From NCBI RefSeq assembly GCF_000444875.1, contig NC_021985.1:7274170-7338169 (forward strand): 64,000 nucleotides of DNA, given 5' to 3'. The stretch is from Streptomyces collinus Tu 365. Its GTDB lineage: Bacteria; Actinomycetota; Actinomycetes; Streptomycetales; Streptomycetaceae. This document shows positions 6,485 to 20,386 of the stretch, in pieces. Position 1 is the first letter of the stretch, and each line of letters begins with the position of its first letter. Both the position numbers and the translations under genes were made by a program. The notes under the pieces were generated by a model, which worked only from the letters and a program-made list of their open reading frames with translations, made no database searches and had not been told where the DNA came from.

Positions 6485-6518
6485 CCGGGCGGATCCGACG
6501 GCAGGGGCGTCCGCCCGG
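6485..6518. terminator. bidirectional hairpin between convergent genes
   Basis: CCGGGCGGA at 6485-6493 pairs perfectly with TCCGCCCGG at 6510-6518 across a 16-base loop. It lies between the stop of the symporter-phosphatase gene (6455) and the stop of the aldolase-like gene (6541), which converge. There is no T-run, as is usual in Streptomyces. Confidence 0.5.
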
Positions 6519-6540
6519 CCTCCCGGGCTTCTGTCGCCGG

Positions 6541-7740
6541 CTACTTCGCCTTGCGGTTCGCGGAGGAGACGGGCTCCTTCCCCAGCCTCTCGATCGTCTC
6601 TTCCATCTCGCTCACCCTGCGGCGCAGTCGCACCAGTTCCTCGCGCTCGGCCGTGGTCAGAGCGCCCGCCGGTCCCTGGCCTCGCTCCACCGCCAGCTCC
6701 TGCGCGATCGCCGCCGCGAACGCGTCCACGTCGGCTTCGGTGGTGTCGAAGGAGGTCATCCAGCGGACCTCGCCGGCCTGCTCGTCCCAGGTGTAGAAGC
6801 GGAAACGCTTCTGGAGACGCTCGGTGACGGCCGGCGGCAGGACGGCGAAGATCTGGTTGGCCTGCACCGGGCGGCGGATCTCCAGGCCCGGCAGGTGGCG
6901 CACCGCCTCGTACAGCCGCTGGGTCATCGCGTTCGAGCCGGCCGCCGAGCGCAGCCAGAGGTCGCCGCCCAGCAGCGCTTCGAACTGCACCGACATGAAA
7001 CGCATCTTGGAGCCCAGCTGCATGCTCGTCTTGCGCAGGTGAGCCATGCCGCGCACCGCGTCCTCGTTGAGCACGATCACCGCCTCGCCAAAGAGCAGCC
7101 CGTTCTTGGTGCCGCCGAGCGAGAGCACGTCCACGCCGACGTCGGTGGTCATCTCACGCAGGGACACGCCGAGGGTGGCGGCGGCGTTGGCGAGCCGGGC
7201 GCCGTCCAGGTAGACGAGCATGCCGCGGTCGTGCGCGTGGTCGCAGATCGCACGGATCTCGTCCGGGGTGTAACAGGTGCCGAGCTCGGTGGACTGGGCG
7301 ATCGAGACGACCCTGGGCCGGGCCCGGTGCTCGTCCTCGAAGCCCCATGCCTGACGGTCGATCAGCTCAGGGGTGAGCTTGCCGTCCCACGCGGGCACCG
7401 TCAGCAGTTTGATCCCGGCGACCTTCTCGGGGGCCCCGCCCTCGTCGACGTTGATGTGGGCCGACTCGGCGCAGATCACGGCGTCCCATCGGTCGAGCAT
7501 GGTCTGCAGCGCGACCACGTTCGCGCCGGTGCCGTTGAAGACCGGGTAGGTGTGCGCGGTGGGGCCGAAGTGGCCGCGCACCACTTCCTGGAGGCGCTCG
7601 GTGTAGACGTCGGCGCCGTAGCTGACCTGGTGGCCGCCGTTGGCCAGGGCGATCGCCGCGAGGACCTCGGGGTGCGCCCCGGCGTAGTTGTCGCTGGCGA
7701 AGCCGCGCTCGTCCGGGTCGTGTCGTCGCTGTATGGTCAT
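6541..7740 (-). CDS. threonine aldolase-like PLP enzyme (beta-eliminating lyase fold)
   Basis: This 399-residue protein belongs to the fold-type I PLP family that includes low-specificity L-threonine aldolases, which cleave or form beta-hydroxy-alpha-amino acids using glycine and an aldehyde. The PLP lysine is Lys212 in LSLGGTKNG, and LDGAR (Asp179, Arg182) supplies the cofactor-binding aspartate. The N-terminus reads FASDNYAGAHPEVL, and residues about 355-390 are charged and look coiled-coil, longer than in housekeeping aldolases. Its start overlaps the stop of the MFS gene by an ATGA, so it is the last gene of the eight-gene operon. In that setting it may process glycine or an aldehyde in the pathway. 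That role is inference; it could also be an ordinary aldolase. Confidence 0.85.
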   Translation of the reverse strand: MTIQRRHDPDERGFASDNYAGAHPEVLAAIALANGGHQVSYGADVYTERLQEVVRGHFGPTAHTYPVFNGTGANVVALQTMLDRWDAVICAESAHINVDEGGAPEKVAGIKLLTVPAWDGKLTPELIDRQAWGFEDEHRARPRVVSIAQSTELGTCYTPDEIRAICDHAHDRGMLVYLDGARLANAAATLGVSLREMTTDVGVDVLSLGGTKNGLLFGEAVIVLNEDAVRGMAHLRKTSMQLGSKMRFMSVQFEALLGGDLWLRSAAGSNAMTQRLYEAVRHLPGLEIRRPVQANQIFAVLPPAVTERLQKRFRFYTWDEQAGEVRWMTSFDTTEADVDAFAAAIAQELAVERGQGPAGALTTAEREELVRLRRRVSEMEETIERLGKEPVSSANRKAK

Positions 7741-9074
7741 GGTGCTGGCCTACTCGTCTCGGTCGTACGGGTGTGACACATGTGGTCCGGACGGGCGCCG
7801 GCCGGCGCCGGCTCCGTCCGCGCGCGGGCCTTCTCCAGGCCGCGCACCAACGGTGGTGCGGCGAGCCCGAGCAGGGCGAAGACCGCCGCGAGGACCAGCC
7901 AGCCGGTCGCCGCCGTGCCGACGACCAGGGAGGTCATCAGCCACGGCCCGGCGAACTGCTGGAGCCCGCGCCCCAGGGAGAACACCGCCTGGTACTCACC
8001 CTGCCGGCCCGCGGGGGCGAGCCCGAAGGACAGGCCCCAGCTCGCCGACGCCTGGTACAGCTCGCCGATGACGAGCACCAGCGCACCAGCCACCAGGGCC
8101 GCGCTGTCCAGGAGCACACCGTGCCCCGCGCTCACCGCGAAGACCAGGCAGGACGCCCCCAGCGCCCACCCCGCCCAGCGCAGCATACGTGCCGCTCCGG
8201 CCGGAGTACGCGCGCCCCCGCTGACCGCGACCTGGAACAGCAGCACCAGGACGGTGTCCAGGATCAGCAGCCCCGACACCAGCAGCGCGGGCGCGTCGGT
8301 GCAGGTGACGATCCACAGCGGCAGACCGACCGTCAGCAGCGGCTGGTACAGCTCCAGAGCACCGCACACCAGCGAGACCGCCACATAGCGCACGTCCCGC
8401 AGCGCGGCGCTGCGCAGCACCCCGCCCGGCGCCTCGGCGGCGGCACGGGGGCCGGCGCCCGCGGGCAGCCGCATCCCGAGCAGCACGGCGACGGAGACCA
8501 ACTGGAGGGCGGCGTTGGCGAGGACCGTGGCGTACAGGGCGGTCGCGGTGCCCGCCGCGATGGCGGCTCCGGCCAGCGCGGCGCCGCCGAGGAAGCCCAG
8601 GTTGAACAGGCTGCGCATCTGCGCGCTCACCCTGACCCGCGCCGCCTCGCCCACCAGCGCGTCGGTGAGTGATGCCTGCAGCGCGCCCGCCGAGGTCTCC
8701 AGGACCGCGAGGGCGCACGCGACCGCGAGGAATGCGGCGAAGCCGTCCACCAGGCAGTAGGCGGTGAAGCCGGCGGCCGCGAGCAGGAAGTTGCCGGCGA
8801 GCACCCGGCCCGCGCCGAGCCGGTCCGCGAGCCGGCCGATGGGCACGGTGCAGAGCAGACCGCAGAGCCCGGCGACCGACAGGGCGAGGCCCACTCGGTG
8901 GGCGGGGATGCCGAGGGTCCGGGTGAAGAACACGGCGCTGGAGGTGAGGAACACCCCGAGCCCCAGGGACTGGATGAGCGTGAGGACGCCGAGTCTGCGC
9001 GCGTTCCCGGCGGCCGGCAGGGACTCCCGGAACCAGGCGCGCAGCACGTCGGCGTGTCCGCGGGCGTCAGCCAT
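7737..9074 (-). CDS. MFS transporter, probable exporter of the pathway product
   Basis: This 445-residue protein has about twelve hydrophobic segments and a typical MFS loop with PIGRLADRLGAGRVLAG between segments two and three. Members of this family act as drug or small-molecule/H+ antiporters in the cytoplasmic membrane. The ATG at 9074 overlaps the end of the ATP-grasp gene by 8 bases, and its stop overlaps the next start by ATGA, so it is co-translated with the biosynthetic genes. The context suggests export of, or self-protection against, the operon's product; the substrate cannot be read from sequence. Confidence 0.85.
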   Translation of the reverse strand: MADARGHADVLRAWFRESLPAAGNARRLGVLTLIQSLGLGVFLTSSAVFFTRTLGIPAHRVGLALSVAGLCGLLCTVPIGRLADRLGAGRVLAGNFLLAAAGFTAYCLVDGFAAFLAVACALAVLETSAGALQASLTDALVGEAARVRVSAQMRSLFNLGFLGGAALAGAAIAAGTATALYATVLANAALQLVSVAVLLGMRLPAGAGPRAAAEAPGGVLRSAALRDVRYVAVSLVCGALELYQPLLTVGLPLWIVTCTDAPALLVSGLLILDTVLVLLFQVAVSGGARTPAGAARMLRWAGWALGASCLVFAVSAGHGVLLDSAALVAGALVLVIGELYQASASWGLSFGLAPAGRQGEYQAVFSLGRGLQQFAGPWLMTSLVVGTAATGWLVLAAVFALLGLAAPPLVRGLEKARARTEPAPAGARPDHMCHTRTTETSRPAP

Positions 9075-10314
9075 GCGGCTCAGCCCCCTCGGCCCGCTCG
9101 GTCCGCAGCCCGTACACCTCCATCGCGGTGTGCACGGCGGCGCGCACCGCGGCGGCGCTCCGCCCCCGGAACCGGAAGATCCCGCAGCCCTCGTCGTAAC
9201 TGCCGGGCCCGGTCAGGATCCGGCCGACGGCGGGCAGTTCCTCGTGGTAGACCTCGGGGACGGCCGACAGGAGCGAGGTACGCGCGACGACCCGGCCGGG
9301 CAGCTCGCGCGGAACGGGGTAGATGAGCCAGCCGCCGGCCCGGGGCCCGACCGGTTCGGACGGCTGCCACAGCGGGGGCAGGTCCAGCGCCGCCCGGAAC
9401 GCCTCGGCGAACAGGTCGATGCCGTAGAGGTCGACGTGCAGGAACGGCACCTGAGCGCCGCCCGGCCGCAGCCCGACCTCCAGGAACACCAGCTCGCCCC
9501 CCGGCCGCCGGATCGCCTCCAGGTGGAACGCGCCGTCGCGCAGCCCGAGCGCCCGCAGACAGTGGTCGGCGAACGTGGTGAGCTCGTCGCGCTCGGGGCC
9601 GGGGTCGAGCAGGACCGAGCCGAGCGGGCGGCCGTGCGCGTAGTCCAGACAGGTGTGGACGTACTGGGAAGCGGTGACGAAGTGGAGGCGGCCGGAGCGG
9701 CGGACGCCGTCGACGTGGAAGATGTCCCCGTCGACGTACTCCTCGCACTCGTACGCCTCGGGGTCGACGCCCTCGAGCGCGTCGCGCAGTTCGTCGGTGC
9801 TGTGGACGACCGTGACTCCCTGGGAGCCCGCCGCCGCGCGCGGCTTGAGGACCAGGGGCGGACCGCCGAGGGCGTCGACGACCGCTTCCGCCGAGGGCGC
9901 GTCGTCGAGCCGCCGGAACCGGGGAACCCGCAGTCCGGCCGCGCCCACCGCGCTCTTCATGGCCGGCTTGTCCTTGAACCGCTCGACGAGGTCGACACCG
10001 TAGCCGCCGGGGACGCCGAGCGCGGCCGAGAGCCGGGCGGCGGTCAGGACGTCGTACTCGGACTGGCCGAAGACCGCCTCGGGCGTACCGTGCCGGTCCG
10101 CGATCTCCCGTACGAGGGGCAGCAGGTCGTCGTGGGCCAGGCTGTCGCGCACATGGACCTCGGTCGCCCCGTCCCGGTCGAGCGCGGGCAGCCCGCCGGG
10201 CGTGGTGAGGTACACCGTCCGGCATGGATGGCCGTCGAGGAAGCGGTGGTATTCGCCGAACTCGTCGCCGGAGCGGTTGAGGACGACGTACAGCGGGGTG
10301 GTCCGGTCGGTCAC
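9067..10314 (-). CDS. ATP-grasp carboxylate-amine ligase (first of two)
   Basis: This 415-residue enzyme has the ATP-grasp layout: an N-terminal Rossmann-like half, then PLVLKPRAAAGSQGVTVV (nucleotide-binding lysine and glycine-rich loop), YECEEYVDGDIFHVDG, and a metal-binding C-terminal LVFLEVGLRPGGAQVP. Such enzymes activate a carboxylate as acyl phosphate and join it to an amine, forming peptide-like bonds without carrier proteins. The GTG at 10314 is chosen because it overlaps the stop of the MetRS-like gene as GTGA; longer in-frame sequence upstream is a shadow of that gene. It is only distantly similar to the other ATP-grasp enzyme of the operon, so two different condensations are likely. 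Substrates are unknown. Confidence 0.85.
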   Translation of the reverse strand: MTDRTTPLYVVLNRSGDEFGEYHRFLDGHPCRTVYLTTPGGLPALDRDGATEVHVRDSLAHDDLLPLVREIADRHGTPEAVFGQSEYDVLTAARLSAALGVPGGYGVDLVERFKDKPAMKSAVGAAGLRVPRFRRLDDAPSAEAVVDALGGPPLVLKPRAAAGSQGVTVVHSTDELRDALEGVDPEAYECEEYVDGDIFHVDGVRRSGRLHFVTASQYVHTCLDYAHGRPLGSVLLDPGPERDELTTFADHCLRALGLRDGAFHLEAIRRPGGELVFLEVGLRPGGAQVPFLHVDLYGIDLFAEAFRAALDLPPLWQPSEPVGPRAGGWLIYPVPRELPGRVVARTSLLSAVPEVYHEELPAVGRILTGPGSYDEGCGIFRFRGRSAAAVRAAVHTAMEVYGLRTERAEGAEPHG

Positions 10315-11942
10315 GTGTCCGCTCCCGGTCGCAGGGTGCCGGGCAGGCAGGCGTCCAGATCGGCGGCGCTCACCCGGCCGAAGCCGGGCGCGGGCCGGTC
10401 CCGCAGGGCCGGGGTCCTGGCGAGGAAGGCCCTCGCGCGAGGCTCTCCGGTGCCCCCGAGGCGCTGCCAGAGGAGCTCGGCGAGGTCCGGCATCACCGGG
10501 AACGCCAGCAGGGACAAGCCCTTGAGCCACCAGTAGGCGCCGTCCTCGGCCGCGTGGGCGACCGCGTCGTCGGCACACCAGCGGTCGAGTGCCGCGACCG
10601 CGCGCCGGGTCGACACACGGGCGCCGTCGAGCGCCGCGGACTGCTCGGCGAGCAGGGATTCCAGGAGGTCGGCGACGGCCGGGGCGGGCGCCTGCGGTGG
10701 CCCGTCCGGCAGCCGGCTCCAGGCGGCGTCGATCCGCTTGCCGAGGCCGTCGGCGAGCGTGGTGTTCGCGGTCCGGAGGAAGTCGGCCGTCTCGAAGCTC
10801 GCCGCCCCGGACTCCAGATCGGCCCCGGCCAGGTGGTACCGGACGGTGTCCACGCCGATGGCGGGCGAGGCGGCGATGTCCGCCGCCCAGATGGCGTGCT
10901 GGGCGCTGGTGGAGAACTTCCGCCCGGCCAGCCGGTAGAAGTTGTTGATCAGGCACCGGTCGTACGGCTTCATGGCGCCGTGCAGCAGGCTGGTGCCGAC
11001 GATCGAGACCAGGGTGGGGATCACGTTGTCGATCCCCAGGGTGGTGATGGTGGTGACCTGGGAGTCCGGGTCGAAGGCGTTCACGCCGGTACCGGACAGC
11101 CGGCCGTGGACGGCGCCGGCGAGGCGGGCGAACATGAAGATCCCGGCGTACGGGAAGAGGGCGCGCGGGACGTCCGGCTCGGATCCGGGCAGCGGAACTC
11201 CCCACGTCTGCGGGGCGCTCAGCCGTACGGTCAGGCCGTCGCGCTCCAGGAAGCGCGCCACGGTCGCCCGGTAGCGGTCGGCGACGCCCAGGTCCGCGAG
11301 GGTGGTGTCCAGGAGGTCGCGGTCGGGCAGCCGCAGGAAGAGGCTGGAGATCTCGCGCCAGGTCAGCGGCCCCTCGTCGAGCAGGGGGCGCGGCTCGACG
11401 ACCGACTCGGGCAGGAAGTGCGCGCTGCACTCCTCGCAGAAGTAACTCGCGATGCCCGCACCGCACTCGGGGCAGCTGCCCTGGAGCCAGCCGCCCACCA
11501 CCCAGCGGTCCGACGCCGCGCAGTGGGGCACGCGCTCGGTACGCGTCAGCACCGCGCCCCGGGCCGTCAGCCGCTCGATCGAGTCGGCCACCTCCTGCTC
11601 GAACTGCTCCCGCCAGGGCTGCTGGTCGGGGACGATGAAAGCGTCGACGCCGATGCGCATCGCGGCCAGGTCGTCCTGGATGCGCCGACCGTAGCGGGCG
11701 GCGACCTCGCCGGGCGTGGAGTCCTCGGCGTGCGCCTTGAGCGTCACGTACGACTCGTACACATCGCTGCCGGTGATCACCAACGGCAGGTCGCCCCGGA
11801 CCCGCAGATGCCGCGCGATCATGTCCGACCACAGGAAGGGGCCGCCGATGTGGCCGAGGTGCAGGGGGCCGTTGGGCGTGGCCTCGGGCGGCACCAGGAG
11901 GTAGTGCCGGGGGGTGTGGGTCTCCCCGGTCAGCAGGCTCAT
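10311..11942 (-). CDS. MetRS-like amino-acid activating enzyme, probable hydrazine synthetase catalytic half
   Basis: This 543-residue protein is a class I methionyl-tRNA synthetase paralogue. It keeps the HIGH-type motif as HLGH (residues 28-31, in PNGPLHLGHIGG) and a zinc knuckle with paired cysteines (CPECGAG...CEECSAH). The KMSKS loop is altered to KFSTS (lysine near residue 342). Known hydrazine synthetases (for example Spb40 of s56-p1, recalled from literature) are fusions of a cupin and a MetRS-like domain. The MetRS part activates an amino acid and esterifies it onto an N-hydroxylated lysine, and the cupin drives N-N bond formation. Here the cupin is a separate gene two positions upstream. 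The ATG at 11942 is chosen by its ATGA overlap with the flavoenzyme gene. A resistance-type MetRS is the main alternative. Confidence 0.85.
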   Translation of the reverse strand: MSLLTGETHTPRHYLLVPPEATPNGPLHLGHIGGPFLWSDMIARHLRVRGDLPLVITGSDVYESYVTLKAHAEDSTPGEVAARYGRRIQDDLAAMRIGVDAFIVPDQQPWREQFEQEVADSIERLTARGAVLTRTERVPHCAASDRWVVGGWLQGSCPECGAGIASYFCEECSAHFLPESVVEPRPLLDEGPLTWREISSLFLRLPDRDLLDTTLADLGVADRYRATVARFLERDGLTVRLSAPQTWGVPLPGSEPDVPRALFPYAGIFMFARLAGAVHGRLSGTGVNAFDPDSQVTTITTLGIDNVIPTLVSIVGTSLLHGAMKPYDRCLINNFYRLAGRKFSTSAQHAIWAADIAASPAIGVDTVRYHLAGADLESGAASFETADFLRTANTTLADGLGKRIDAAWSRLPDGPPQAPAPAVADLLESLLAEQSAALDGARVSTRRAVAALDRWCADDAVAHAAEDGAYWWLKGLSLLAFPVMPDLAELLWQRLGGTGEPRARAFLARTPALRDRPAPGFGRVSAADLDACLPGTLRPGADT

Positions 11943-13042
11943 GTTCGCGTTCTCCTGTCGAGCAGGTCCAGTGCGTCCTCGGCCATGGCCGGGGCGAGTC
12001 GGTAGCCGGATCCGGAACCGCCGATGGCCATGACGACGTCGTCGTCGCCGGCCGTGTCCACGATCGGCACATGGCCGGCGGTGAAGCAGTCGCTGAAGAC
12101 CCGGCCGCCGAGCAGGTGCGGCAGGAAGCCCGGTACGTGCCGGGCGAGCAGGGCCCGGGCGACTTCCCGGTCGCGGGGGTCGATGGCGAGTGGTTCGTCG
12201 GGGCCGCGGTCCCAGTCGGGCGAGGTGATGCTGAGGATCCAGTGGCCGCCGCCGTGGTGGGGCAGCAGGAAGGCGTCGGCGTCCTCCAGGACCAGTGCCG
12301 GGGCGCCCGGCGGGGGCGCCGTCATGAGGTGGAACGCCACCACCTTCTTCACCCGGGCCCCGCGCGCGCGGGCCGCCGCCGCCACCGGGCCGTCGAGGAC
12401 CCAGGGGCCGGGCGCGAGGACCGCCTTGGCGGCGGTGAGCCGGCTGCCGTCGGCGGCGACCAGCTCGACGCACCCGCCCGTACGCCGTACCCGGGTCACC
12501 CGGAATCCCTCCAGGAGGGTGTTGGCCGGGCGGCCGAGGACCTCGTCGAGCAGCCGGTCGGTGAGCCACTGCGGCCGGCCCATGGTCATGGGGCCGCTCG
12601 CCAGCAGGACTTGGTCGCCGCCGTGGGCGAACCCGGGGAACGTCCGCTCGAGCAGGGATCGCTCCTCCCCGCTGACCGGGCGCGTACGGCCGCCGTCGGC
12701 CATGGTCGCGTCGAGCGCGGCCGTGTTCTCGCGCGCCACCAGCCAGCGGACGTCGACCGGCGCGCGTCCGGCGTCGCCGAGTCCGGCGGCGAGCTCGTCG
12801 AAGAGCGCGGTGCTGCGGGCGGCCAGCGCACGCTGGGCCGGGTTGTGCCCCGTGGGCGTGTCGAATCCGGCCGACAGACGGGTCGCGCCCGTCCCCCGTC
12901 CGGCGTGCGTGATCACGGCGACGCGCCGGCCCGGGTCCCGGCGCACGGCGTAGTACGCGGTGAGGGCGCCGACCACGCCCGCACCGACGACGGCGAGGTC
13001 GTAGTGGGGCGCCTCACCGGTCCCGGTGATGCGCTCACTCAT
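11939..13042 (-). CDS. FAD-dependent DAO-family oxidoreductase
   Basis: This 367-residue protein belongs to the D-amino acid/glycine oxidase (DAO) superfamily. It starts with the dinucleotide motif DLAVVGAGVVGALTAYYAV and has a late GGSGSGYRLAPAMAEDAL segment typical of the family's C-terminal FAD contact. DAO-type enzymes oxidise secondary or primary amines. In hydrazine pathways, homologues oxidatively cleave the lysine-hydrazino-acid conjugate to release a free hydrazino acid. The gene overlaps the cupin gene by 8 bases and the MetRS-like gene by 4, fixing the ATG at 13042. The assigned step is inferred from this gene order. Confidence 0.85.
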   Translation of the reverse strand: MSERITGTGEAPHYDLAVVGAGVVGALTAYYAVRRDPGRRVAVITHAGRGTGATRLSAGFDTPTGHNPAQRALAARSTALFDELAAGLGDAGRAPVDVRWLVARENTAALDATMADGGRTRPVSGEERSLLERTFPGFAHGGDQVLLASGPMTMGRPQWLTDRLLDEVLGRPANTLLEGFRVTRVRRTGGCVELVAADGSRLTAAKAVLAPGPWVLDGPVAAAARARGARVKKVVAFHLMTAPPPGAPALVLEDADAFLLPHHGGGHWILSITSPDWDRGPDEPLAIDPRDREVARALLARHVPGFLPHLLGGRVFSDCFTAGHVPIVDTAGDDDVVMAIGGSGSGYRLAPAMAEDALDLLDRRTRT

Positions 13043-13412
13043 GGGGCGCCGACCACCAGAAGGAGTAGACGACCAGTTCCTCGCCCTGGTCGGCGAAGAT
13101 CTCGTGGACGGCCTGTGAGGCGAAGCCCACCAGGGAGCCGGGCCCGACGAGCGACCGCTCGCCGTCCACCTCCAGGGTGCCGGAGCCGGCGTGGACCACC
13201 CAGATCTCCTGGACCGCGTGCTGGTCCGGCGAGCTGCTCCCGCCCGCCGGCACGGTGAAGCGGGCCGCCTCGAACGGCACGTGGGGGAAGACCGAACGGG
13301 CGAAGTCCGCCTCGGCGACGGTCACTCCGTCGGGTTCCTCCTCGGTCGGGCCGAAGGGAACCAGGGCGCCGACCGCCTCCGCCTGGAACTGCGCCACCTG
13401 ACGCGCGGTCAT
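13035..13412 (-). CDS. stand-alone cupin, probable N-N bond-forming partner of the MetRS-like enzyme
   Basis: This 125-residue single-domain cupin carries a metal-site signature: DQHAVQEIWVVHAGSG supplies His and Glu, and SQAVHEIFADQG supplies the second His. The barrel is complete and ends in YSFWWSAPHE. In characterised hydrazine synthetases a zinc cupin of this type is fused to the MetRS-like domain; here it is encoded alone, two genes from the MetRS-like gene. Its ATG overlaps the hydroxylase stop (ATGA). The C-terminus overlaps the DAO gene by 8 bases. Taken alone it could be any small metal cupin; the neighbourhood is what suggests the function. Confidence 0.82.
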   Translation of the reverse strand: MTARQVAQFQAEAVGALVPFGPTEEEPDGVTVAEADFARSVFPHVPFEAARFTVPAGGSSSPDQHAVQEIWVVHAGSGTLEVDGERSLVGPGSLVGFASQAVHEIFADQGEELVVYSFWWSAPHE

Positions 13413-14638
13413 ACCGGATACCTCGTCTCACCGAGCATGCTGTTGAGGATGACCGCGCTGCGCCACGCGAGCAGGCTGAGATTGGGATCGGCGACGCCCC
13501 AGGCGTGCCGGGCGCCGTTCTGGAGGTAGATCCGGTTCTCCGCGGGCCCGTCCCAGGCGACCGAGAAGTCGTCGCCCACGACGAGCATCCCGCCGTCCCG
13601 CCGCAGTCGCGCGTCCAGCGGCGCCATGAAGTCCGGCAGCGCGTAGGCGTATCCGGTGCTCAGGATCACGAGGTCGGCCGCGAGCACGGCGGGTGCCTCC
13701 GGGCCGGAGGACTCGACGACGAGCTTGAAGTCGCCGGGGCCGCCCTCGACCGCGGTGACCGCGCAGTCCGCCATGAAGCGCAGCCGGCCGGGGTTGTCCT
13801 CGATGAACTCGTCGCGGTAGCTCAACCGGTAGATGTCCTGCAGGACTTGGAGGTCGATGCCGTCGCTGGTGTACTTCTGCCGCTCCAGGAGCCGGGACTT
13901 GTGGTCGGCGGGCAGCGCGTGGAAGCGGCGTACGTAGTCGGGCGTGTAGAGGTCGTTGGCGAAGGGCGAGTCGTCCATCGGCAGGAACGACGAGCGCCGG
14001 CTGACCCAGGTGATGCTCTCGGCAGCCGCGCCGGCCGCCAGGTGGCGCACGATCTCCGCGCCGCTCTGGCCGCCGCCGACCACGACGACTCGCCGTCCGG
14101 TCACCTCGGGGGACCGCAGCAGGAACTCCCCGGAGTGGAAGACGGTGGGGCCGATGAAGGGGCGGAACGGCTCGGGGACGGACGGCGTGAGCCCGGTGCC
14201 CAGCACGAGGTGACGTGCCGTCACCTCCCGTTCGGCGGTGCGGAGGTGGAAGGCTCCGTCGTGGAAGTCCACGCTGTGGACGTCCGCGCCGAACGTCAGG
14301 CTCGGCAGCCGCCCGGCGACCCACTGGAGGTACTGGTTGAACTCGGCGCGCAGGACGGCCGGGAAGTCGGCGGCCAGGAACCGGTAGAGCCGGCCCTCAC
14401 TCGCCAGGAACGACAGGAACGAGAAGGGGCTGGTCGGATCGACCAGCGTCACCAAATCCTTGAGCAGCGAGACCTGGAGGGTGGCCTCGGGCAGCAGCAG
14501 CCCGGGGTGCCAGGAGAAGCTCTCACGGCGCTCCAGGTGGGCGCCGCGCAGTCCTTCGACCGGATGCGCGAGCGCGGCGAGGCTCATGTTCGCGGGGCCG
14601 ATGCCGACGGCCGCGTAGTCGAGTATGTGTGCGTTCAT
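13409..14638 (-). CDS. lysine/ornithine N-monooxygenase (IucD/SidA family)
   Basis: This 409-residue flavoenzyme is predicted to N-hydroxylate the side-chain amine of lysine or ornithine using FAD, NADPH and oxygen. It has the FAD motif GIGPANMSLAALA, the family sequence LPEATLQVSLLKDLVTLVDP, an NADPH-binding VVVVGGGQSGAEIVRHL and the late substrate-side motif LSTGYAYALPDF. Siderophore pathways use this family, but no siderophore synthetase, acyltransferase or siderophore uptake gene is near. Its fellow operon genes (cupin, MetRS-like, DAO-like) instead match hydrazine formation, where the hydroxylated lysine is the first intermediate. The ATG at 14638 has GGGGG about 8 bases upstream and follows the previous stop by 16 bases. 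Confidence 0.88.
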   Translation of the reverse strand: MNAHILDYAAVGIGPANMSLAALAHPVEGLRGAHLERRESFSWHPGLLLPEATLQVSLLKDLVTLVDPTSPFSFLSFLASEGRLYRFLAADFPAVLRAEFNQYLQWVAGRLPSLTFGADVHSVDFHDGAFHLRTAEREVTARHLVLGTGLTPSVPEPFRPFIGPTVFHSGEFLLRSPEVTGRRVVVVGGGQSGAEIVRHLAAGAAAESITWVSRRSSFLPMDDSPFANDLYTPDYVRRFHALPADHKSRLLERQKYTSDGIDLQVLQDIYRLSYRDEFIEDNPGRLRFMADCAVTAVEGGPGDFKLVVESSGPEAPAVLAADLVILSTGYAYALPDFMAPLDARLRRDGGMLVVGDDFSVAWDGPAENRIYLQNGARHAWGVADPNLSLLAWRSAVILNSMLGETRYPV

Positions 14639-14654
14639 GGTGGCAACCCCCGGG

Positions 14655-15917
14655 TCAGGCCGGGACGACGAGGTCGCCGAGCGCCTGCCAGCGGTCCAGG
14701 GCGTCCTGCGGCGAGTCGGCGGTGAACAGGGCGTGGCCGAGGCGCGAGCGGCAGTCCTCGACGCCGGGGATGGTCTCGCCCGGCGCGAAGTAGACGGCGG
14801 TCTCGGTGACTTCCGGCAGTGCCTCCAGTTCCGGCCACCCGGTGAGCTCCCGGTACGAGGAGCGGCCCGCGGCGGAGAAGAAGCGGATGCCGGCACTCCT
14901 GGCCTGCGGCCGTGCGAAGGCGCCCGCCGCCTCCAGGCCGACGCCGAGCGCGGTGGCGACGGCCACCCTGGGCAGGCTGACGCCGGTCACGAGCCGCAGC
15001 AGCTCCACGATCCGGTCGCCCGGCAGCCGGGCGCCGATCTCGATGAGCACCGGACCGTCGGCGCTCAGGCGTAGTTCGCAGTGGAAGGGGCCGCTGGTGA
15101 TGCCGACGGCGCGGACGACGTCGCCGACGTACGCCTCGATGCCGCGCAGGGTGGCGTCGTCGACGAGCGCCGGGGTGAGGTGGCCGAGCTCCACGAAGTC
15201 GGGCTCGGGGCCGAGCAGGGTGCGGCTGAGGGCGACGACGGTGACCTCGCCGCTCTCCAGGACGTAGCCGTCGGCGCTGAACTCGGGGCCCTGGACGTAC
15301 TCTTCGACGAGTACCCGGTGCTCGTGCAGCTTGCCCATGTCGGGCTCCGGATCGGTCACGAGCCGCTGGAACGCGGCGGTGAGCTGGTCGAGGTCGTCGG
15401 CGCGGCTGACGTGGATGCTGCCGGAACAGGCGACCGGCTTCAGCACGCAGGGGAAGCCGACCCGTTCGGCCGCGGCGCGCAGTTCGGCGTCGGTGGTCGC
15501 CTGGGCGAAGCGCGGGGTGCGCAAGCCGGCCTCCGCCACGGCGGCCCGCATGACGCTCTTGTCCCGGACCCTGTCGACGGTCGCCACGGGCAGGCCGGGC
15601 AGGTCCAGTGCCGCGGCGACGCGCGCGGTCGCCGTCACGTAGATGTCGGAGCCCGGCAGCACCGCCTCGAACGGCTCGGCTCGGTGCAGTTCGAGCACGG
15701 CCGCTTCGAGGTCGGCCTGGTCGTTGGTCTCCACCGTCAGCACCGAGTCGGCCGCCGCGCGCACGGCGTCGGAGAGCCGGCGGTCGCCGGAGTCGGCGGT
15801 GGCGACGACGACCCGCAGTCCCATCTCGGCCGCGACACCGATCAGGGTGGCGCCTCCGGAGGAGGCGGGTTCGACCACCAGGACGCGGGCAGGGCGAAGT
15901 ACATCTGTGTGCGGCAA
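14655..15917 (-). CDS. ATP-grasp carboxylate-amine ligase (second), first gene of the operon
   Basis: This 420-residue enzyme shows the ATP-grasp core: PCVLKPVACSGSIHVS (ATP loop with lysine), VLVEEYVQGPEFSADG, and LIEIGARLPGDRIVELL, which carries the metal-binding glutamate. Its C-terminal part (IRFFSAAGR to the end) resembles the LAL/BacD-type dipeptide ligases. It would condense an amino acid or hydrazino acid with another carboxylate. The start is a TTG at 15917-15915 with GGGGGA seven bases upstream; no better in-frame ATG or GTG exists nearby. It leads the operon, and a palindromic candidate operator lies about 40 bases upstream. Confidence 0.85.
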   Translation of the reverse strand: MPHTDVLRPARVLVVEPASSGGATLIGVAAEMGLRVVVATADSGDRRLSDAVRAAADSVLTVETNDQADLEAAVLELHRAEPFEAVLPGSDIYVTATARVAAALDLPGLPVATVDRVRDKSVMRAAVAEAGLRTPRFAQATTDAELRAAAERVGFPCVLKPVACSGSIHVSRADDLDQLTAAFQRLVTDPEPDMGKLHEHRVLVEEYVQGPEFSADGYVLESGEVTVVALSRTLLGPEPDFVELGHLTPALVDDATLRGIEAYVGDVVRAVGITSGPFHCELRLSADGPVLIEIGARLPGDRIVELLRLVTGVSLPRVAVATALGVGLEAAGAFARPQARSAGIRFFSAAGRSSYRELTGWPELEALPEVTETAVYFAPGETIPGVEDCRSRLGHALFTADSPQDALDRWQALGDLVVPA

Positions 15918-16330
15918 AGCGAGATCCCCCGTGCAGAGCTGTATGGACCGGACGCGCGATCACGGTCCTGATCGTGATCTTTCTATCCGGGCGCCTGGGA
16001 CCCGGTCAATGGATCACCGCAAAATCCTCTGCGAGAGCCAACCTCGGCCGCACGATTTCCGGAACAGGGCCGCCATGGACGCCTGTTCGGCCCCGGAGGT
16101 GAAGATCATCCGCATTGCGCCATATGTCGAAGCGTGTGCTACGGCAGCATGTCGACCTCATGACACCACCAGGCAAGACCTGGTGCCGCGGCGGAGTACG
16201 GACCAGGCTGACGTGTACATCTCCAGTCCGCCGTTCCGTCCCCGCAGAAAGCTTCACCGCGCATGCATGCGACCTGTCTCCCCGGTGCCCGAGAAGCACA
16301 CACCTCGTGTGGGGCGAGGAGGTGCCGCGC
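15918..16330. other. divergent intergenic region between the pathway operon and the ABC transporter
   Basis: About 410 bases without a credible gene separate the two divergent operons. They hold the palindrome at 15958-15979 and a tight hairpin at 16167-16185 (CACCAGG, loop CAAGA, CCTGGTG). AGGAGG at 16317-16322 is the ribosome binding site of the permease. The reading frame open through 16115-16330 is continuous with the permease but has poor composition and no support as coding. Confidence 0.6.
15958..15979. promoter_or_regulatory. 22-bp palindrome, candidate operator of the pathway operon
   Basis: GATCACG and CGTGATC form a perfect inverted repeat with an 8-base spacer. It lies 41 bases upstream of the TTG start of the first pathway gene, where an operator or promoter element would be expected. 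No regulator gene for it is encoded next to the operon inside the window. Binding protein unknown. Confidence 0.45.
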
Positions 16331-17314
16331 GTGGCGCGCTATGTGATGCGCAAGGCGGCCGGCTGGCTTCTGATGATCGTGGTCGCGACGAACGCCACCT
16401 ATTTCCTGGCCAGTTGGTTCCTCGACCCGCGGTCGAACTTCAAGGAGCTGCGGCCCGTCCGCACCGAGGCGCAGATCGACCGGGCCCTCGCGCCGTACAA
16501 CCTGGATCCCACGGTGCCGTTGGCGCACCGCTGGTGGGACTGGCTGACCTCGGTGATCCTGCGCTTCGACTGGGGAAAGTCCCCCACCGGGGTCTCCGTC
16601 AACGGCGAAGTCGGCTACCGGGCGCTGATCAGCGCGGAGTTGGTCCTCGTCGCGACCGTGCTGTCCGTCGTGATCGGTGTCGCGCTCGGCGTCCACACCG
16701 CCGCACGGCAGTACGGCTGGGCCGACCGGGTCTCGCAGGCCGTGTCCATCGTGGTGTTCAACGTCCCCACCTCCGTCGCCGCCCTCGCCGTGGTCTTCGG
16801 CGCCATCTGGCTGAACCAGCACGCCGGGCTGCACTTCCTCTACGTCGCGGGGGAGGACTCGCCGGGCGTCGAAGGACTGCTCCCCACGATCGGTGACCGT
16901 CTCCTGCACCTGATCCTGCCGACTCTGACGCTCACGCTGATGGGTTACGTCGGCTATCACCTGACGCAGCGTTCGCTGTTGCTCGACACGCTGCACGCCG
17001 ACTTCGTGCGGACCGCCCGGGCCACCGGGCTCACCCGCACCCAGGCCATCCGCAGGCACGCTCTGAGGGCCGCGCTCATCCCGACGGCTGCTTCCGTGGC
17101 GTTCAGTGTCCCGGCCGTCTTCACCGGTGCCGTCATCACGGAGACGATCTTCGGCTGGAACGGCATGGGCCGCTACTTCATCCAGACCATCGGCAAGAAC
17201 GACGTACACGGCGTGGTCGCGACGGCCGCCTTCGCCGCGGCCCTGACCGCGATCGGTGCGATCCTCGCGGACATCGCCACGGTCTTCCTCGACCCGAGAG
17301 TGCGGGTGAGCTGA
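16331..17314 (+). CDS. ABC transporter permease, DppB/OppB type
   Basis: This 327-residue protein is the first permease of a peptide/nickel-type ABC importer. It has a hydrophobic N-terminal helix (MRKAAGWLLMIVVATNATYF), a long periplasmic-side loop and the permease coupling region around DFVRTARATGLTRTQAIRRH, which docks on the ATPase. The GTG at 16331 is chosen because AGGAGG lies 8 bases upstream and the family N-terminus begins here; the longer open frame upstream looks non-coding. One base separates its stop from the next start, so the genes form an operon. Substrate unknown. Confidence 0.88.
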   Translation: MARYVMRKAAGWLLMIVVATNATYFLASWFLDPRSNFKELRPVRTEAQIDRALAPYNLDPTVPLAHRWWDWLTSVILRFDWGKSPTGVSVNGEVGYRALISAELVLVATVLSVVIGVALGVHTAARQYGWADRVSQAVSIVVFNVPTSVAALAVVFGAIWLNQHAGLHFLYVAGEDSPGVEGLLPTIGDRLLHLILPTLTLTLMGYVGYHLTQRSLLLDTLHADFVRTARATGLTRTQAIRRHALRAALIPTAASVAFSVPAVFTGAVITETIFGWNGMGRYFIQTIGKNDVHGVVATAAFAAALTAIGAILADIATVFLDPRVRVS

Positions 17315-17315
17315 C

Positions 17316-18254
17316 GTGACCACCGACGCGCCCTCCCGGCCGGCCGAGGAACAGGTGTCACAAGCGGCAACCATCGTGCGAAAGCACGCGAACCCCGGCC
17401 TCGGCCGGCTCTACCTGCGGCGGTTCCTGCGCAACCGCATCGCCGTCGTCGGAGTGGTGATCTTCGTGCTGCTGGTGCTGTTCGGAGCCTTCGGCGGCCG
17501 GTTCACCTCCTACGCGTACACCGACGCCGACTTCACCGCGCTCACCCAGCCTCCGAGCGGCCGGCACTGGTTCGGCACCAACCAGGGCGGCAACGACATC
17601 TATGCCTGCGCCGTCCACGGGCTCCAGCGCTCCCTGATGATCGCCGTGAGCGTGTCGGTACTGACGATCGTCCTGGCCGCGATCATCGGCTCGGGCGCCG
17701 CGTACTTCGGCGGCCGGGTCGAGCGGGCGACCCTCGCCGTCATCCACTTCCTGCTGATCGTCCCCTCGTTCCTCATCCTCGCCCTGGTCTCCCACCGGCT
17801 GGCCGGCGACTGGCGCGTCCTCATCGCCGTGCTGACCGTGTTCGGCTGGATGTCCACCGCGCGGGTGATCTGGTCCGTCTCGACCTCACTGCGCGAACGG
17901 GACTACGTGAAGGCGGCCGAGTTCATGGGAGTCGGTCCGCTGCGAATCGTCCTGCGCCACATCATCCCCAACCTCGGGTCCCTGCTGATCGTCAACCTGA
18001 CGCTCGGAGTCGTGGCGACCGTGCTCAGCGAAACCGCCCTTTCGTTCCTCGGGTTCGGTGTCCAGACCCCGGACGTCTCCCTCGGCACGATGCTCGCGGA
18101 CGGCGCGAACACCGTCACGAGCGCCCCCTGGCTCTTCGCCTTCCCCGCCGGACTGGTCGTCCTGCTCACCGTGTCGATGACCTTCATCGGCGACGGCCTG
18201 CGCGACGCCCTCGACCCCACGTCGGTGACCGGCTCGGCGGGAGGCCGGCGATGA
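17316..18254 (+). CDS. ABC transporter permease, DppC/OppC type
   Basis: This 312-residue second permease has a cytoplasmic N-terminal tail, a membrane helix (FLRNRIAVVGVVIFVLLVLF), the family's GTNQGGNDIYACAVHG segment after the first helix, and the coupling motif RDYVKAAEFMGVGPLRIVLR. The GTG start at 17316 lies one base after the previous stop. The 3' end overlaps the ATPase gene by ATGA. It would form the membrane channel together with the preceding protein. Confidence 0.88.
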   Translation: MTTDAPSRPAEEQVSQAATIVRKHANPGLGRLYLRRFLRNRIAVVGVVIFVLLVLFGAFGGRFTSYAYTDADFTALTQPPSGRHWFGTNQGGNDIYACAVHGLQRSLMIAVSVSVLTIVLAAIIGSGAAYFGGRVERATLAVIHFLLIVPSFLILALVSHRLAGDWRVLIAVLTVFGWMSTARVIWSVSTSLRERDYVKAAEFMGVGPLRIVLRHIIPNLGSLLIVNLTLGVVATVLSETALSFLGFGVQTPDVSLGTMLADGANTVTSAPWLFAFPAGLVVLLTVSMTFIGDGLRDALDPTSVTGSAGGRR

Positions 18255-20335
18255 CCCTCGCGACCCCGCTGCCCGCCCCGGCACCCTCCACCGACACCGA
18301 TCCCGTCCTCTCCGTGCGTGACCTGCGGATCTCGTTCCCCTCCGAGGCGGGCACCGTCGAGGCGGTACGCGGCGTGAGCTTCGACCTGCTGCCCGGCCGG
18401 ACCCTCTGCGTCGTCGGCGAGTCGGGCTCGGGCAAGTCGGCCACCGCGATGGGCATCATGGGCCTGCTGCCGCCCACCGCCGACCTGCGCGGCCAGGTGC
18501 TGCTCGGCGGACAGGACCTCATCGGCCTCGACGACCGGGCACTGTCGAAGATCCGCGGCAACTCCATCGGCATGGTCTTCCAGGACCCCTTGTCCGCCCT
18601 CACACCGATCTTCTCGGTGGGCAGGCTGCTCTCCGACGCCCTGCGGGTCCACCAGGACCTGACGAAGCGGGCAGCCTGGGAACAGGCCGTGGAACTGCTC
18701 GACCTCGTCGGCATTCCCGACCCGCGCAACCGGGCCGCCGCCTTCCCGCACGAGTTCTCCGGCGGCATGCGCCAGCGCGTGGTCATCGCCATGGCCATCG
18801 CCAACAGACCGTCCGTGCTGGTGGCCGACGAACCCACCACCGCACTCGACGTCACCGTGCAGGCCCAGATCCTCGACGTGCTGCGGCTGGCACAGCAGGA
18901 GACCGGCGCCGGTCTCGTCCTGATCACGCACGACCTCGGGGTCGTGGCGGGCCACGCGGACGACGTCGCCGTCATGTACGCGGGCCGGATCGTGGAACAC
19001 GCGGGCGCCGGGGAACTCTTCCGCCGGCCGACGATGCCGTACACCGCGCGGCTGCTCGCCGCCGTGCCCACCGTGGACGGCGGGACCCACCGGCCCCTGG
19101 TCCCGATCGGTGGGGAGCCACCCGCCCCGGTGGGCCTCCCGGACGGCTGCCCCTTCGCACCCCGCTGTGCCGTCGCCCTCGACGTGTGCCGCTCCGGCGA
19201 GCCGCAGCTGCGCCACGTCACCGGGCACGGACACGTGGCCTGCCTTCGCGCCACCGAGATCGCCGACGGATCCCTGGACCCGACGGGCGATGCCGCGCCC
19301 GTCGACCCACCGGCGCCCTCGAGTCGTGCCGCGGCCGGCGAGGTGGTGCTCCGTGTCGAGGACCTCGTCAAGACCTACCCGGTCACCAAGGGCGTCCTCC
19401 TCAAGCGCCGAGTCGGTACCCTGCGCGCCGTCAACCGGGTCAGCTTCGAGCTGCGTGCCGGCGAGACGCTCGGCCTGGTCGGTGAGTCCGGCAGCGGCAA
19501 GACCACGACCCTGATGGAGATCCTTCGGCTCGGACGGCCCGAAGGCGGCCGGATCGAGGTCTCCGGCGTCGACGTCGGCACGGTCCTGTCCGGCGCGCGC
19601 CCACGGCAGCTGCGGCAGGACGTACAGATCGTCATGCAGGACCCCCTGGGGGCTCTGGACCCCCGGATGCCCGTATTCCACTCGCTGGCCGAACCCCTGC
19701 GGGCGATCGGGCGTGATCGCGAGTCGATCCGCGCACGGGTCCGCGAACTGCTGACCCTGGTGGGTCTGGACGACTCGGTGAGCGACCGCTTCCCGGCCGC
19801 ACTCTCCGGAGGCCAGCGCCAACGGGTCGCCATCGCCCGTGCCCTGGCGACGGAGCCGAAGCTGCTCGCGCTCGACGAGCCGCTCTCCGCGCTCGACGTC
19901 TCGGTACAGGCCGGGGTGATCAACCTGCTGGCGCGGCTCAAGCGGGAACTCGGCCTCGCCTACCTCGTGGTCGCCCACGACCTGGCCGTGGTCCGGTACA
20001 TCTCCGATCGCATCGCGGTGATGTACCTGGGACACATCGTCGAGACCGGGGACACCGAGGCGATCTTCTCCGATCCGAGGCACCCCTACACGCGGGCGCT
20101 GCTGTCGGCGATCCCGATACCCGACCCCGAGCGGGAACGCACCCGCGAACGCGTCGTGCTGGAGGGCGAGCAGCCGACCGCCGCCCGGGTGCCCGCGGGA
20201 TGTGTCTTCGTCGACCGCTGCCCGCTGTACCACCTTGCCGACGAGGAACTGCGGCACCGCTGTCGCACCCAGCCCCCCGCGCCGGCCTCGGCAGCCGGAC
20301 TCCCCGGCCATCGGTACGCCTGCCACGGAGTCTGA
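18251..20335 (+). CDS. fused dual ABC ATPase (OppD-OppF type)
   Basis: This 694-residue protein contains both nucleotide-binding subunits of an oligopeptide-type importer in one chain. Module 1 (about residues 20-340) has Walker A GESGSGKSATA, signature FSGGMRQRVVIAMA and the family C-terminal cysteine motif GCPFAPRCA. Module 2 (about 360-694) has GESGSGKTTTL, LSGGQRQRVAIARA and GCVFVDRCPLY. The cysteine-containing tails may bind an iron-sulfur cluster, as reported for some relatives. ATP hydrolysis here would power the two permeases upstream. The start overlaps the permease stop by ATGA. Confidence 0.9.
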   Translation: MTLATPLPAPAPSTDTDPVLSVRDLRISFPSEAGTVEAVRGVSFDLLPGRTLCVVGESGSGKSATAMGIMGLLPPTADLRGQVLLGGQDLIGLDDRALSKIRGNSIGMVFQDPLSALTPIFSVGRLLSDALRVHQDLTKRAAWEQAVELLDLVGIPDPRNRAAAFPHEFSGGMRQRVVIAMAIANRPSVLVADEPTTALDVTVQAQILDVLRLAQQETGAGLVLITHDLGVVAGHADDVAVMYAGRIVEHAGAGELFRRPTMPYTARLLAAVPTVDGGTHRPLVPIGGEPPAPVGLPDGCPFAPRCAVALDVCRSGEPQLRHVTGHGHVACLRATEIADGSLDPTGDAAPVDPPAPSSRAAAGEVVLRVEDLVKTYPVTKGVLLKRRVGTLRAVNRVSFELRAGETLGLVGESGSGKTTTLMEILRLGRPEGGRIEVSGVDVGTVLSGARPRQLRQDVQIVMQDPLGALDPRMPVFHSLAEPLRAIGRDRESIRARVRELLTLVGLDDSVSDRFPAALSGGQRQRVAIARALATEPKLLALDEPLSALDVSVQAGVINLLARLKRELGLAYLVVAHDLAVVRYISDRIAVMYLGHIVETGDTEAIFSDPRHPYTRALLSAIPIPDPERERTRERVVLEGEQPTAARVPAGCVFVDRCPLYHLADEELRHRCRTQPPAPASAAGLPGHRYACHGV

Positions 20336-20386
20336 ACACGGTCCGTCGATGCTGTCCCCTCACCGACCCCTAAGGAACCCTCCACC

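What the first reader, a model, noticed from the sequence alone, without database searches (positions are those of the whole stretch)
10311..13412. Hydrazine synthetase split into separate cupin and MetRS-like genes
Characterised synthetases are single cupin-MetRS proteins. Here a 125-residue cupin and a 543-residue MetRS paralogue are encoded apart, with the DAO-like gene between them. The MetRS HIGH motif is kept (HLGH) and the KMSKS loop is changed to KFSTS, which suggests adenylation without normal tRNA charging. A natural split would help separate the two half-reactions.
Basis: partly seen in the sequence, partly recalled or inferred. Interest (0 to 1): 0.75.

Follow-up and report, generated by a model that had tools for sequence, protein, structure and literature searches.

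The report
Two-gene hydrazine-forming enzyme in Streptomyces
A bacterial gene cassette encodes the two halves of a known nitrogen-nitrogen bond-forming enzyme as separate proteins; that arrangement is already known and well studied, but this particular cassette and its product appear uncharacterised.

Summary
The genes are real and correctly read: a 125-aa cupin (13412-13035), a DAO-like oxidase (13042-11939) and a 543-aa MetRS-like protein (11942-10311), all on the minus strand with overlapping ends. Sequence, motif and fold evidence support a hydrazine synthetase encoded as two proteins: the cupin keeps all four zinc/catalytic residues of the proven stand-alone cupin RHS1, at the same residue numbers, and the MetRS-like model matches the PyrN MetRS-like domain best. 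But the novelty claim fails. Zhao et al. 2021 already report stand-alone pairs, test one (RHS1) and separate the half-reactions; in my sample 28 of 31 cupin-accompanied homologues are split. KFSTS is no sign of lost tRNA charging: it is in the fused homologues, in a canonical MetRS-type gene of this genome and in Pyrococcus MetRS. Worth keeping: the pair sits in a sharply bounded 9.6-kb, eight-gene cassette (two ATP-grasp ligases, hydroxylase, oxidase, MFS, threonine-aldolase homologue), about 94% identical in six named Streptomyces with unrelated flanks; a six-gene core is in Streptosporangiaceae. Its conserved amino-acid pocket fits neither the Gly-type nor the Glu-type residues I could compare. 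My searches found no published description of the cassette.

The parts
10311..11942 (-). MetRS-like protein (543 aa): predicted to adenylate an amino acid and pass it to the N-hydroxy group of an N-hydroxylated amino acid
   Evidence: best fold match: PyrN MetRS-like domain 9l8v, Z 34.0, rmsd 3.6, 500 residues aligned
13035..13412 (-). stand-alone cupin (125 aa): predicted zinc-dependent N-O to N-N rearrangement
   Evidence: (best PDB sequence match 5uqp = RHS1, E 6.5e-16); D63, H65, E69, H103 kept
11939..13042 (-). DAO-family FAD oxidase (367 aa), predicted Spb39/Tri27-like cleavage of the hydrazine adduct
   Evidence: 38% identical over 359 aa to the DAO of the azaserine-like S. lavendulae plasmid locus L059
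13409..14638 (-). flavin N-hydroxylase of the lysine/ornithine/diamine family (409 aa)
   Evidence: PF13434 E 5.8e-104; closest solved: 6xbb, 7us3 putrescine N-hydroxylase, 5o8p desferrioxamine-type lysine monooxygenase
9067..10314 (-). ATP-grasp ligase 1 (GTG start)
   Evidence: L-amino acid ligase 4wd3 E 1.6e-13
14655..15917 (-). ATP-grasp ligase 2 with LAL_C2 domain (TTG start as listed)
   Evidence: L-amino acid ligase 3vot E 5.6e-32
7737..9074 (-). MFS transporter, presumed exporter
   Evidence: PF07690 E 1.2e-11
6541..7740 (-). PLP enzyme, L-threonine aldolase homologue; accessory, not found beside the Streptosporangiaceae versions
   Evidence: (5vye E 2.5e-78)

Best explanation
A two-protein cupin/MetRS-like hydrazine synthetase inside an NRPS-free biosynthetic cassette. 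Inferred sequence of events: the flavin hydroxylase makes an N-hydroxy amino acid (most likely N6-hydroxylysine). The MetRS-like protein adenylates a second amino acid with ATP and esterifies it onto the N-OH. The zinc cupin rearranges this O-acyl hydroxylamine to an N-N bond. The DAO-like flavoenzyme oxidatively cleaves the adduct to a free hydrazino acid. One or both ATP-grasp ligases join that acid to other amino acids, and the MFS protein exports the small hydrazine-containing peptide. Shown here: gene content, co-linearity, conservation, catalytic residues, folds. Inferred from characterised homologues: the four chemical steps up to the hydrazino acid. Inferred from gene content only: ligation and export. 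The identity of the second amino acid is open. The confidence given is for the two-protein hydrazine synthetase; for the ligation and export steps it is about 0.5.
For: Cupin: best PDB sequence match is 5uqp (RHS1), E 6.5e-16 over 1-121; the four zinc-coordinating residues of RHS1 (Asp63, His65, Glu69, His103; each alanine variant inactive) sit at the same residue numbers here. H65, E69 and H103 are invariant in 16 of 16 aligned cupins. MetRS-like: HLGH and the motif lysine K342 are kept; the lysine is invariant in 21 of 21 rows of alignment A1. Model pLDDT 88.5, pTM 0.91. Best VIA-align match is the PyrN MetRS-like domain with glutamyl-sulfamoyl-adenosine (9l8v, Z 34.0, rmsd 3.6, 500 residues, 24% identity), next a tRNA-charging MetRS at Z 30.4. 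E. coli MetRS methionine-pocket positions: 2 of 14 match, so it is not a methionine enzyme. A lysine/ornithine-type hydroxylase and a Spb39/Tri27-family DAO are in the same operon. Cassette of 9.6 kb at about 94% identity in six named Streptomyces with unrelated flanks. Core order kept in 16 of 16 relatives.
Against: No activity, expression or metabolite data. The cupin model's best VIA-align rows are other cupins (5j7m Z 16.0, rmsd 2.2, 111 residues); 5uqp is not among the 50 rows shown, so the RHS1 link rests on sequence and catalytic residues. The hydroxylase's nearest solved relatives include diamine hydroxylases, so the N-hydroxy partner may not be lysine. Authors of the azaserine study judged their ATP-grasp gene probably dispensable, so ligation by ATP-grasp enzymes is not assured. 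In L010 the adjacent hydroxylase is replaced by a distant one further upstream.
Confidence: 0.87

Rival explanations
1. The MetRS-like protein is a second or variant methionyl-tRNA synthetase, for example a resistance copy, and the cupin is an unrelated neighbour.
For: NCBIfam names the best-matching model 'methionine--tRNA ligase' (NF008863, E 1.3e-144); the fold covers the whole MetRS including the C-terminal helices (model residues up to 537).
Against: Score 482.8 is below that model's cut-off of 551. 2 of 14 methionine-pocket positions match E. coli MetRS. No anticodon-binding Pfam match up to E 0.1, against E 2.4e-57 for the genome's own MetRS L002, though a fused homologue does show one (L053, E 1.1e-7). 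The genome already has two canonical MetRS-type genes side by side. Cupin and DAO accompany the gene in 16 of 16 relatives.
Confidence: 0.03
2. MetRS-like protein plus hydroxylase plus cupin make an O- or N-acyl hydroxylamine or another non-hydrazine product, the cupin having changed function.
For: [quoted passage not shown] a sister clade of MetRS-like genes has no HYS-type cupin nearby.
Against: The cupin keeps all four RHS1 zinc residues including the catalytic Glu69 and is under purifying selection; the DAO downstream has a ready role in cleaving an N-N adduct.
Confidence: 0.08
3. Variant of the best explanation: the DAO cleaves on the other side (as reported for Apy10), so the cassette hands an amino acid bearing a terminal hydrazine, not an alpha-hydrazino acid, to the ligases.
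For: Both regiochemistries are known in this DAO family (review PMC11705231, section 15); ligases that need a free alpha-amino acid would suit this product.
Against: The best DAO bit score outside the clade in my set is S. hirsutus L053 (35%, 159 bits) and the highest identity over full length is the azaserine-like L059 (38%), whose type gives hydrazinoacetic acid; no Apy10 sequence was available to compare.
Confidence: 0.3

Closest known systems
RHS1 plus stand-alone MetRS-like protein of Rhodococcus jostii RHA1 (Zhao et al. 2021; PDB 5UQP)
   Same: Separate cupin and MetRS-like genes in one cluster with a flavin N-hydroxylase, ATP-grasp genes and an MFS gene (the Rhodococcus DK17 copy with the same cupin accession); all four zinc residues
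   Different: Rhodococcus cluster has a saccharopine-dehydrogenase-type gene and an FMN luciferase-like gene rather than a DAO; uses Glu, and its pocket lacks the Asp kept here; MetRS-like identity about 25%
PyrN (pyrazomycin), fused cupin-MetRS, Glu-specific
   Same: Same two domains, HLGH and KFST motifs, best fold match
   Different: Fused; the position aligned to window Asp60 is Val in the phmmer alignment
Spb40 / Tri28 / AzsN (fused, Gly) with DAO Spb39 / Tri27 / AzsM
   Same: Hydroxylase + DAO + cupin + MetRS-like set leading to hydrazinoacetic acid; Asp pocket residue kept in the azaserine-like L059
   Different: Fused; 10 of 14 pocket positions of L059 differ; NRPS or acyl-carrier chemistry downstream rather than two ATP-grasp ligases
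Deinococcus ficus pDFI1 locus L057 (no study of it met in my searches)
   Same: Hydroxylase, separate cupin and MetRS-like genes, FAD oxidase, ATP-grasp genes, MFS
   Different: FAD oxidase lies after, not between, the halves; three ATP-grasp genes; different pocket (4 of 14 shared)

Membership tests
cupin/MetRS-like hydrazine synthetase | zinc-binding and catalytic cupin residues (RHS1 Asp63, His65, Glu69, His103) | tested here: met
   all four at the same numbers in P0002
cupin/MetRS-like hydrazine synthetase | MetRS-like adenylation fold with HIGH and the essential KMSKS-loop lysine (PyrN K458) | tested here: met
   HLGH 28-31, K342; fold best match PyrN domain Z 34.0; equating K342 with PyrN K458 is by motif alignment
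cupin/MetRS-like hydrazine synthetase | co-encoded flavin N-hydroxylase | tested here: met
   13409-14638, PF13434 E 5.8e-104
cupin/MetRS-like hydrazine synthetase | co-encoded adduct-cleaving enzyme (DAO or saccharopine dehydrogenase type) | tested here: met
   DAO 11939-13042
cupin/MetRS-like hydrazine synthetase | cupin structurally nearest to RHS1 5UQP | tested here: inconclusive
   5uqp not among the 50 rows shown for the cupin model, where the listed rows have Z 13.4-16.0
cupin/MetRS-like hydrazine synthetase | ATP-dependent N-N bond formation | not testable with these tools
   needs assay
canonical methionyl-tRNA synthetase | methionine-binding pocket | tested here: not met
   2 of 14 positions match E. 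coli MetRS; pocket positions recalled from the literature, alignment by MAFFT
canonical methionyl-tRNA synthetase | anticodon-binding domain | tested here: inconclusive
   no Pfam anticodon match for P0001 up to E 0.1, but C-terminal helices align to MetRS in the model
canonical methionyl-tRNA synthetase | NCBIfam equivalog cut-off | tested here: not met
   482.8 bits against 551

The most novel reading that the evidence does not exclude
The cassette defines a hydrazine synthetase subfamily that activates an amino acid outside the five reported (Gly, Ala, Ser, Glu, Tyr). An acidic residue (Glu20) sits where E. coli MetRS has Leu13, and the 14-position pocket is identical in the window and in 14 of 16 relatives of its clade, down to about 55% overall identity (13 of 14 positions in L014, 11 of 14 in L027). 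Two L-amino-acid-ligase-type enzymes would build the resulting hydrazino acid into peptides without an NRPS: a new route to hydrazine-containing peptides, spread as a discrete cassette.
Probability: 0.25. Interest if true: 0.55.

Novelty: new member of a known kind. Interest (0 to 1): 0.33.

Why it matters
As a split enzyme it adds little: natural pairs and separated half-reactions are published. As a cassette it is useful: compact, conserved and apparently moving as a unit, so a good genome-mining target for hydrazine-containing small peptides. It also offers a MetRS-like half with an unassigned pocket for widening the amino-acid scope of enzymatic N-N bond formation. It warns too that a 'methionine--tRNA ligase' model is the best NCBIfam match of such genes.

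Tried and rejected
Rejected: that KFSTS is a degenerate KMSKS signalling lost charging. Rejected: frameshift or assembly split, since a whole gene lies between and the order is conserved. Rejected: the peptide ABC transporter at about 16115-22069 as part of the cluster; similarity to the relatives ends near 16,100. Tried without result: substrate prediction from the published eight pocket residues (Matsuda et al. 2024, ChemBioChem; seen only as citation and summary inside the review; not in the library). Paper searches for the cassette, or for ATP-grasp with hydrazine, gave no description of it; the PDB-code search returned 17 papers, unrelated by their titles. No Ala-, Ser- or Tyr-type reference sequence could be fetched by name. 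5uqp did not appear in the 50 rows shown for the cupin model. The upstream alignment was mis-cut and was redone. An earlier count said that 10 of 15 synthetases in the review's Table 2 are pairs; on rereading only 4 of 15 carry two accessions, and six hyphenated names with one accession each are ambiguous. In the split/fused count I dropped L029: its two cupin hits lie in an 846-aa two-cupin ORF, which I judged not to be the partner; that is judgement, not a test. Loci L048, L049 and L050 were left out of the tree as near-duplicates, and L048 and L049 also out.
Full report
Observation. They lie in a run of eight minus-strand genes from 15917 to 6541: ATP-grasp 2, N-hydroxylase, cupin, DAO, MetRS-like, ATP-grasp 1, MFS, threonine-aldolase homologue. 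From the coordinates, six of the seven junctions overlap by 4 or 8 bases; the first has a 16-base gap. The genome held is 8.38 Mb in three contigs.

What the cupin is. Its best solved relative by sequence is 5uqp (E 6.5e-16). That is RHS1, the stand-alone zinc cupin of Rhodococcus jostii for which Zhao et al. 2021 showed N-N bond formation (PMC8664883; I read the abstract, sections 7, 8, 10 and 12 and passages). Asp63, His65, Glu69 and His103, each essential in RHS1, are at the same residue numbers here. In the 16 cupins aligned, H65, E69 and H103 are invariant; position 63 is Asp in 11, His in 4 and Glu in 1 by my reading, and PyrN has His there (His50). The cupin model is fair (pLDDT 82.7); VIA-align lists many cupins, led by 5j7m at Z 16.0, and 5uqp is not among the 50 rows shown.

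What the MetRS-like protein is. The model is good (pLDDT 88.5, pTM 0.91; residues 344-347, in the KFSTS loop, are the only segment under 50). VIA-align puts the PyrN MetRS-like domain with glutamyl-sulfamoyl-adenosine first (9l8v, Z 34.0, rmsd 3.6, 500 residues), above all tRNA-charging MetRS listed (best Z 30.4); Foldseek by E-value puts 1rqg first and 9l8v second. The methionine pocket is gone: 2 of 14 positions match E. coli MetRS (the list of positions is recalled). NCBIfam's best model calls it methionine--tRNA ligase, but the score is under the cut-off.

The KFSTS argument fails. Among the homologues with a HYS-type cupin (34 rows with the window, three near-duplicates included, L029 left out), all 34 have KFSTS or KFSTG, the three fused ones included. 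The genome's MetRS-type gene L002/L062, with Anticodon_3 at E 2.4e-57, also has KFSTS, and so has P. abyssi MetRS 1rqg (printed alignment). PyrN needs the lysine of its putative ATP-binding motif for activity (K458A). The motif is therefore expected in an active adenylating enzyme and says nothing about tRNA.

The split is not new. Zhao et al. state in the abstract that the enzymes sometimes exist as two stand-alone proteins, and they tested gene pairs (section 12). The review PMC11705231 (section 15 read) lists 15 further synthetases, of which 4 carry two accessions, and names Afn8/Afn9 of albofungin as separate MetRS-like and cupin proteins. In my own tree of 37 family members plus two MetRS outgroups, 28 are split, 3 fused and 6 have no HYS-type cupin nearby (L029 counted there by judgement); 17 of the 28 split rows are the window's own clade. 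The fewest changes between split and fused on that tree is one, with the three fused rows forming one clade, so on this sample fusion looks derived. The sample was chosen by similarity to the window protein and leans on plasmids, several branches are long, and the tree is a quick one.

The cassette. DNA similarity to six named Streptomyces species (L003-L008) runs from about 6505 to 16,100 of the window at 93-94% identity and stops at both ends; five of the six show no other match over 200 bases to the window, and L006 shows four short ones elsewhere. All six have the complete eight-gene set. In one search, 16 of 16 relatives keep cupin > DAO > MetRS > ATP-grasp 1, 15 of 16 also keep ATP-grasp 2 > hydroxylase ahead of them, and 8 of 16 have all eight genes in order; the Streptosporangiaceae versions and L027 show no match to the aldolase or MFS in that call, though other MFS genes lie beside three of them. 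Genome counts for the MetRS-like protein: 9 of 392 Streptomyces genomes at E <= 1e-60 (three of these, the window's own included, are 94-100% identical), 3 of 396 in a phylum-wide draw at 1e-40, 6 of 250 in the family of G778 (Sphaerisporangium) at 1e-45, 9 of 394 in the class at 1e-45. The draws overlap.

Substrate. The window's clade has 16 relatives in the tree. In 14 of them (L003-L013, L015, L044, L045) all 14 pocket positions equal the window's; L014 has 13 and L027 has 11, while overall identity falls to about 55%. They differ from the azaserine-like fused enzyme L059 at 10 of 14 and from the Rhodococcus Glu-type at 11 of 14. The Asp that in MetRS holds the substrate amine (recalled) is kept here (Asp60) but is Ala in Rhodococcus and aligns with Val in PyrN. 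So the amino acid is probably neither Glu nor, less surely, Gly. Glu20 in the pocket is unusual in this set. I cannot name the substrate.

How it most likely works. See Best explanation. The steps to the hydrazino acid follow characterised homologues; the two ATP-grasp enzymes resemble L-amino acid ligases and suggest peptide formation without an NRPS. The threonine-aldolase homologue could supply glycine or build a beta-hydroxy amino acid; this is guesswork.

Verdict. Ordinary as a split enzyme; a sound new member of a known enzyme kind; mildly interesting as an uncharacterised, apparently mobile, NRPS-free hydrazine cassette.

Noticed in passing
L030 8389-10957, L046 8979-11548, L031 8661-10619: A sister clade of MetRS-like genes has no HYS-type cupin nearby. 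Beside them sit a 2OG-Fe dioxygenase (L030, L046; PF10014 E about 1e-29) or a 120-aa protein with a weak Cupin_2 hit below cut-off (L031, E 0.0029); possibly a different way to process the same kind of ester.
   Followed up: partly
G000:C1 4508179-4511002 (loci L062, L063): The window's genome has two adjacent canonical MetRS-type genes, one with HLGN/KFSTS and one with HLGH/KMSKS.
   Followed up: no
L012 5109-5933, L014 5118-6014, L015 5166-6053: An ORF of 274-298 aa precedes the cassette core in these Streptosporangiaceae; a weak tRNA_SAD hit, below cut-off, in L012 only hints at an aminoacyl-tRNA editing protein, perhaps self-protection.
   Followed up: partly
window 15958-15979: Inverted repeat GATCACGGTCCTGATCGTGATC upstream of the first cassette gene; the region is partly conserved in L003-L008. 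Possible operator.
   Followed up: no
plasmid collection: 187 Escherichia plasmid records match the MetRS-like protein weakly; the 13 E. coli rows in the spread list are short matches (query 11-188), 12 of them annotated metG and one without annotation, so probably ordinary MetRS-type genes on plasmids rather than hydrazine clusters.
   Followed up: partly
L071 5998-7443 (Klebsiella oxytoca plasmid); L060 6653-9837 (Klebsiella variicola plasmid): L071: a MetRS-like hypothetical protein next to a KamA-family radical SAM gene on a conjugative IncFII plasmid. L060: hydroxylase, cupin and MetRS-like genes in a row.
   Followed up: no
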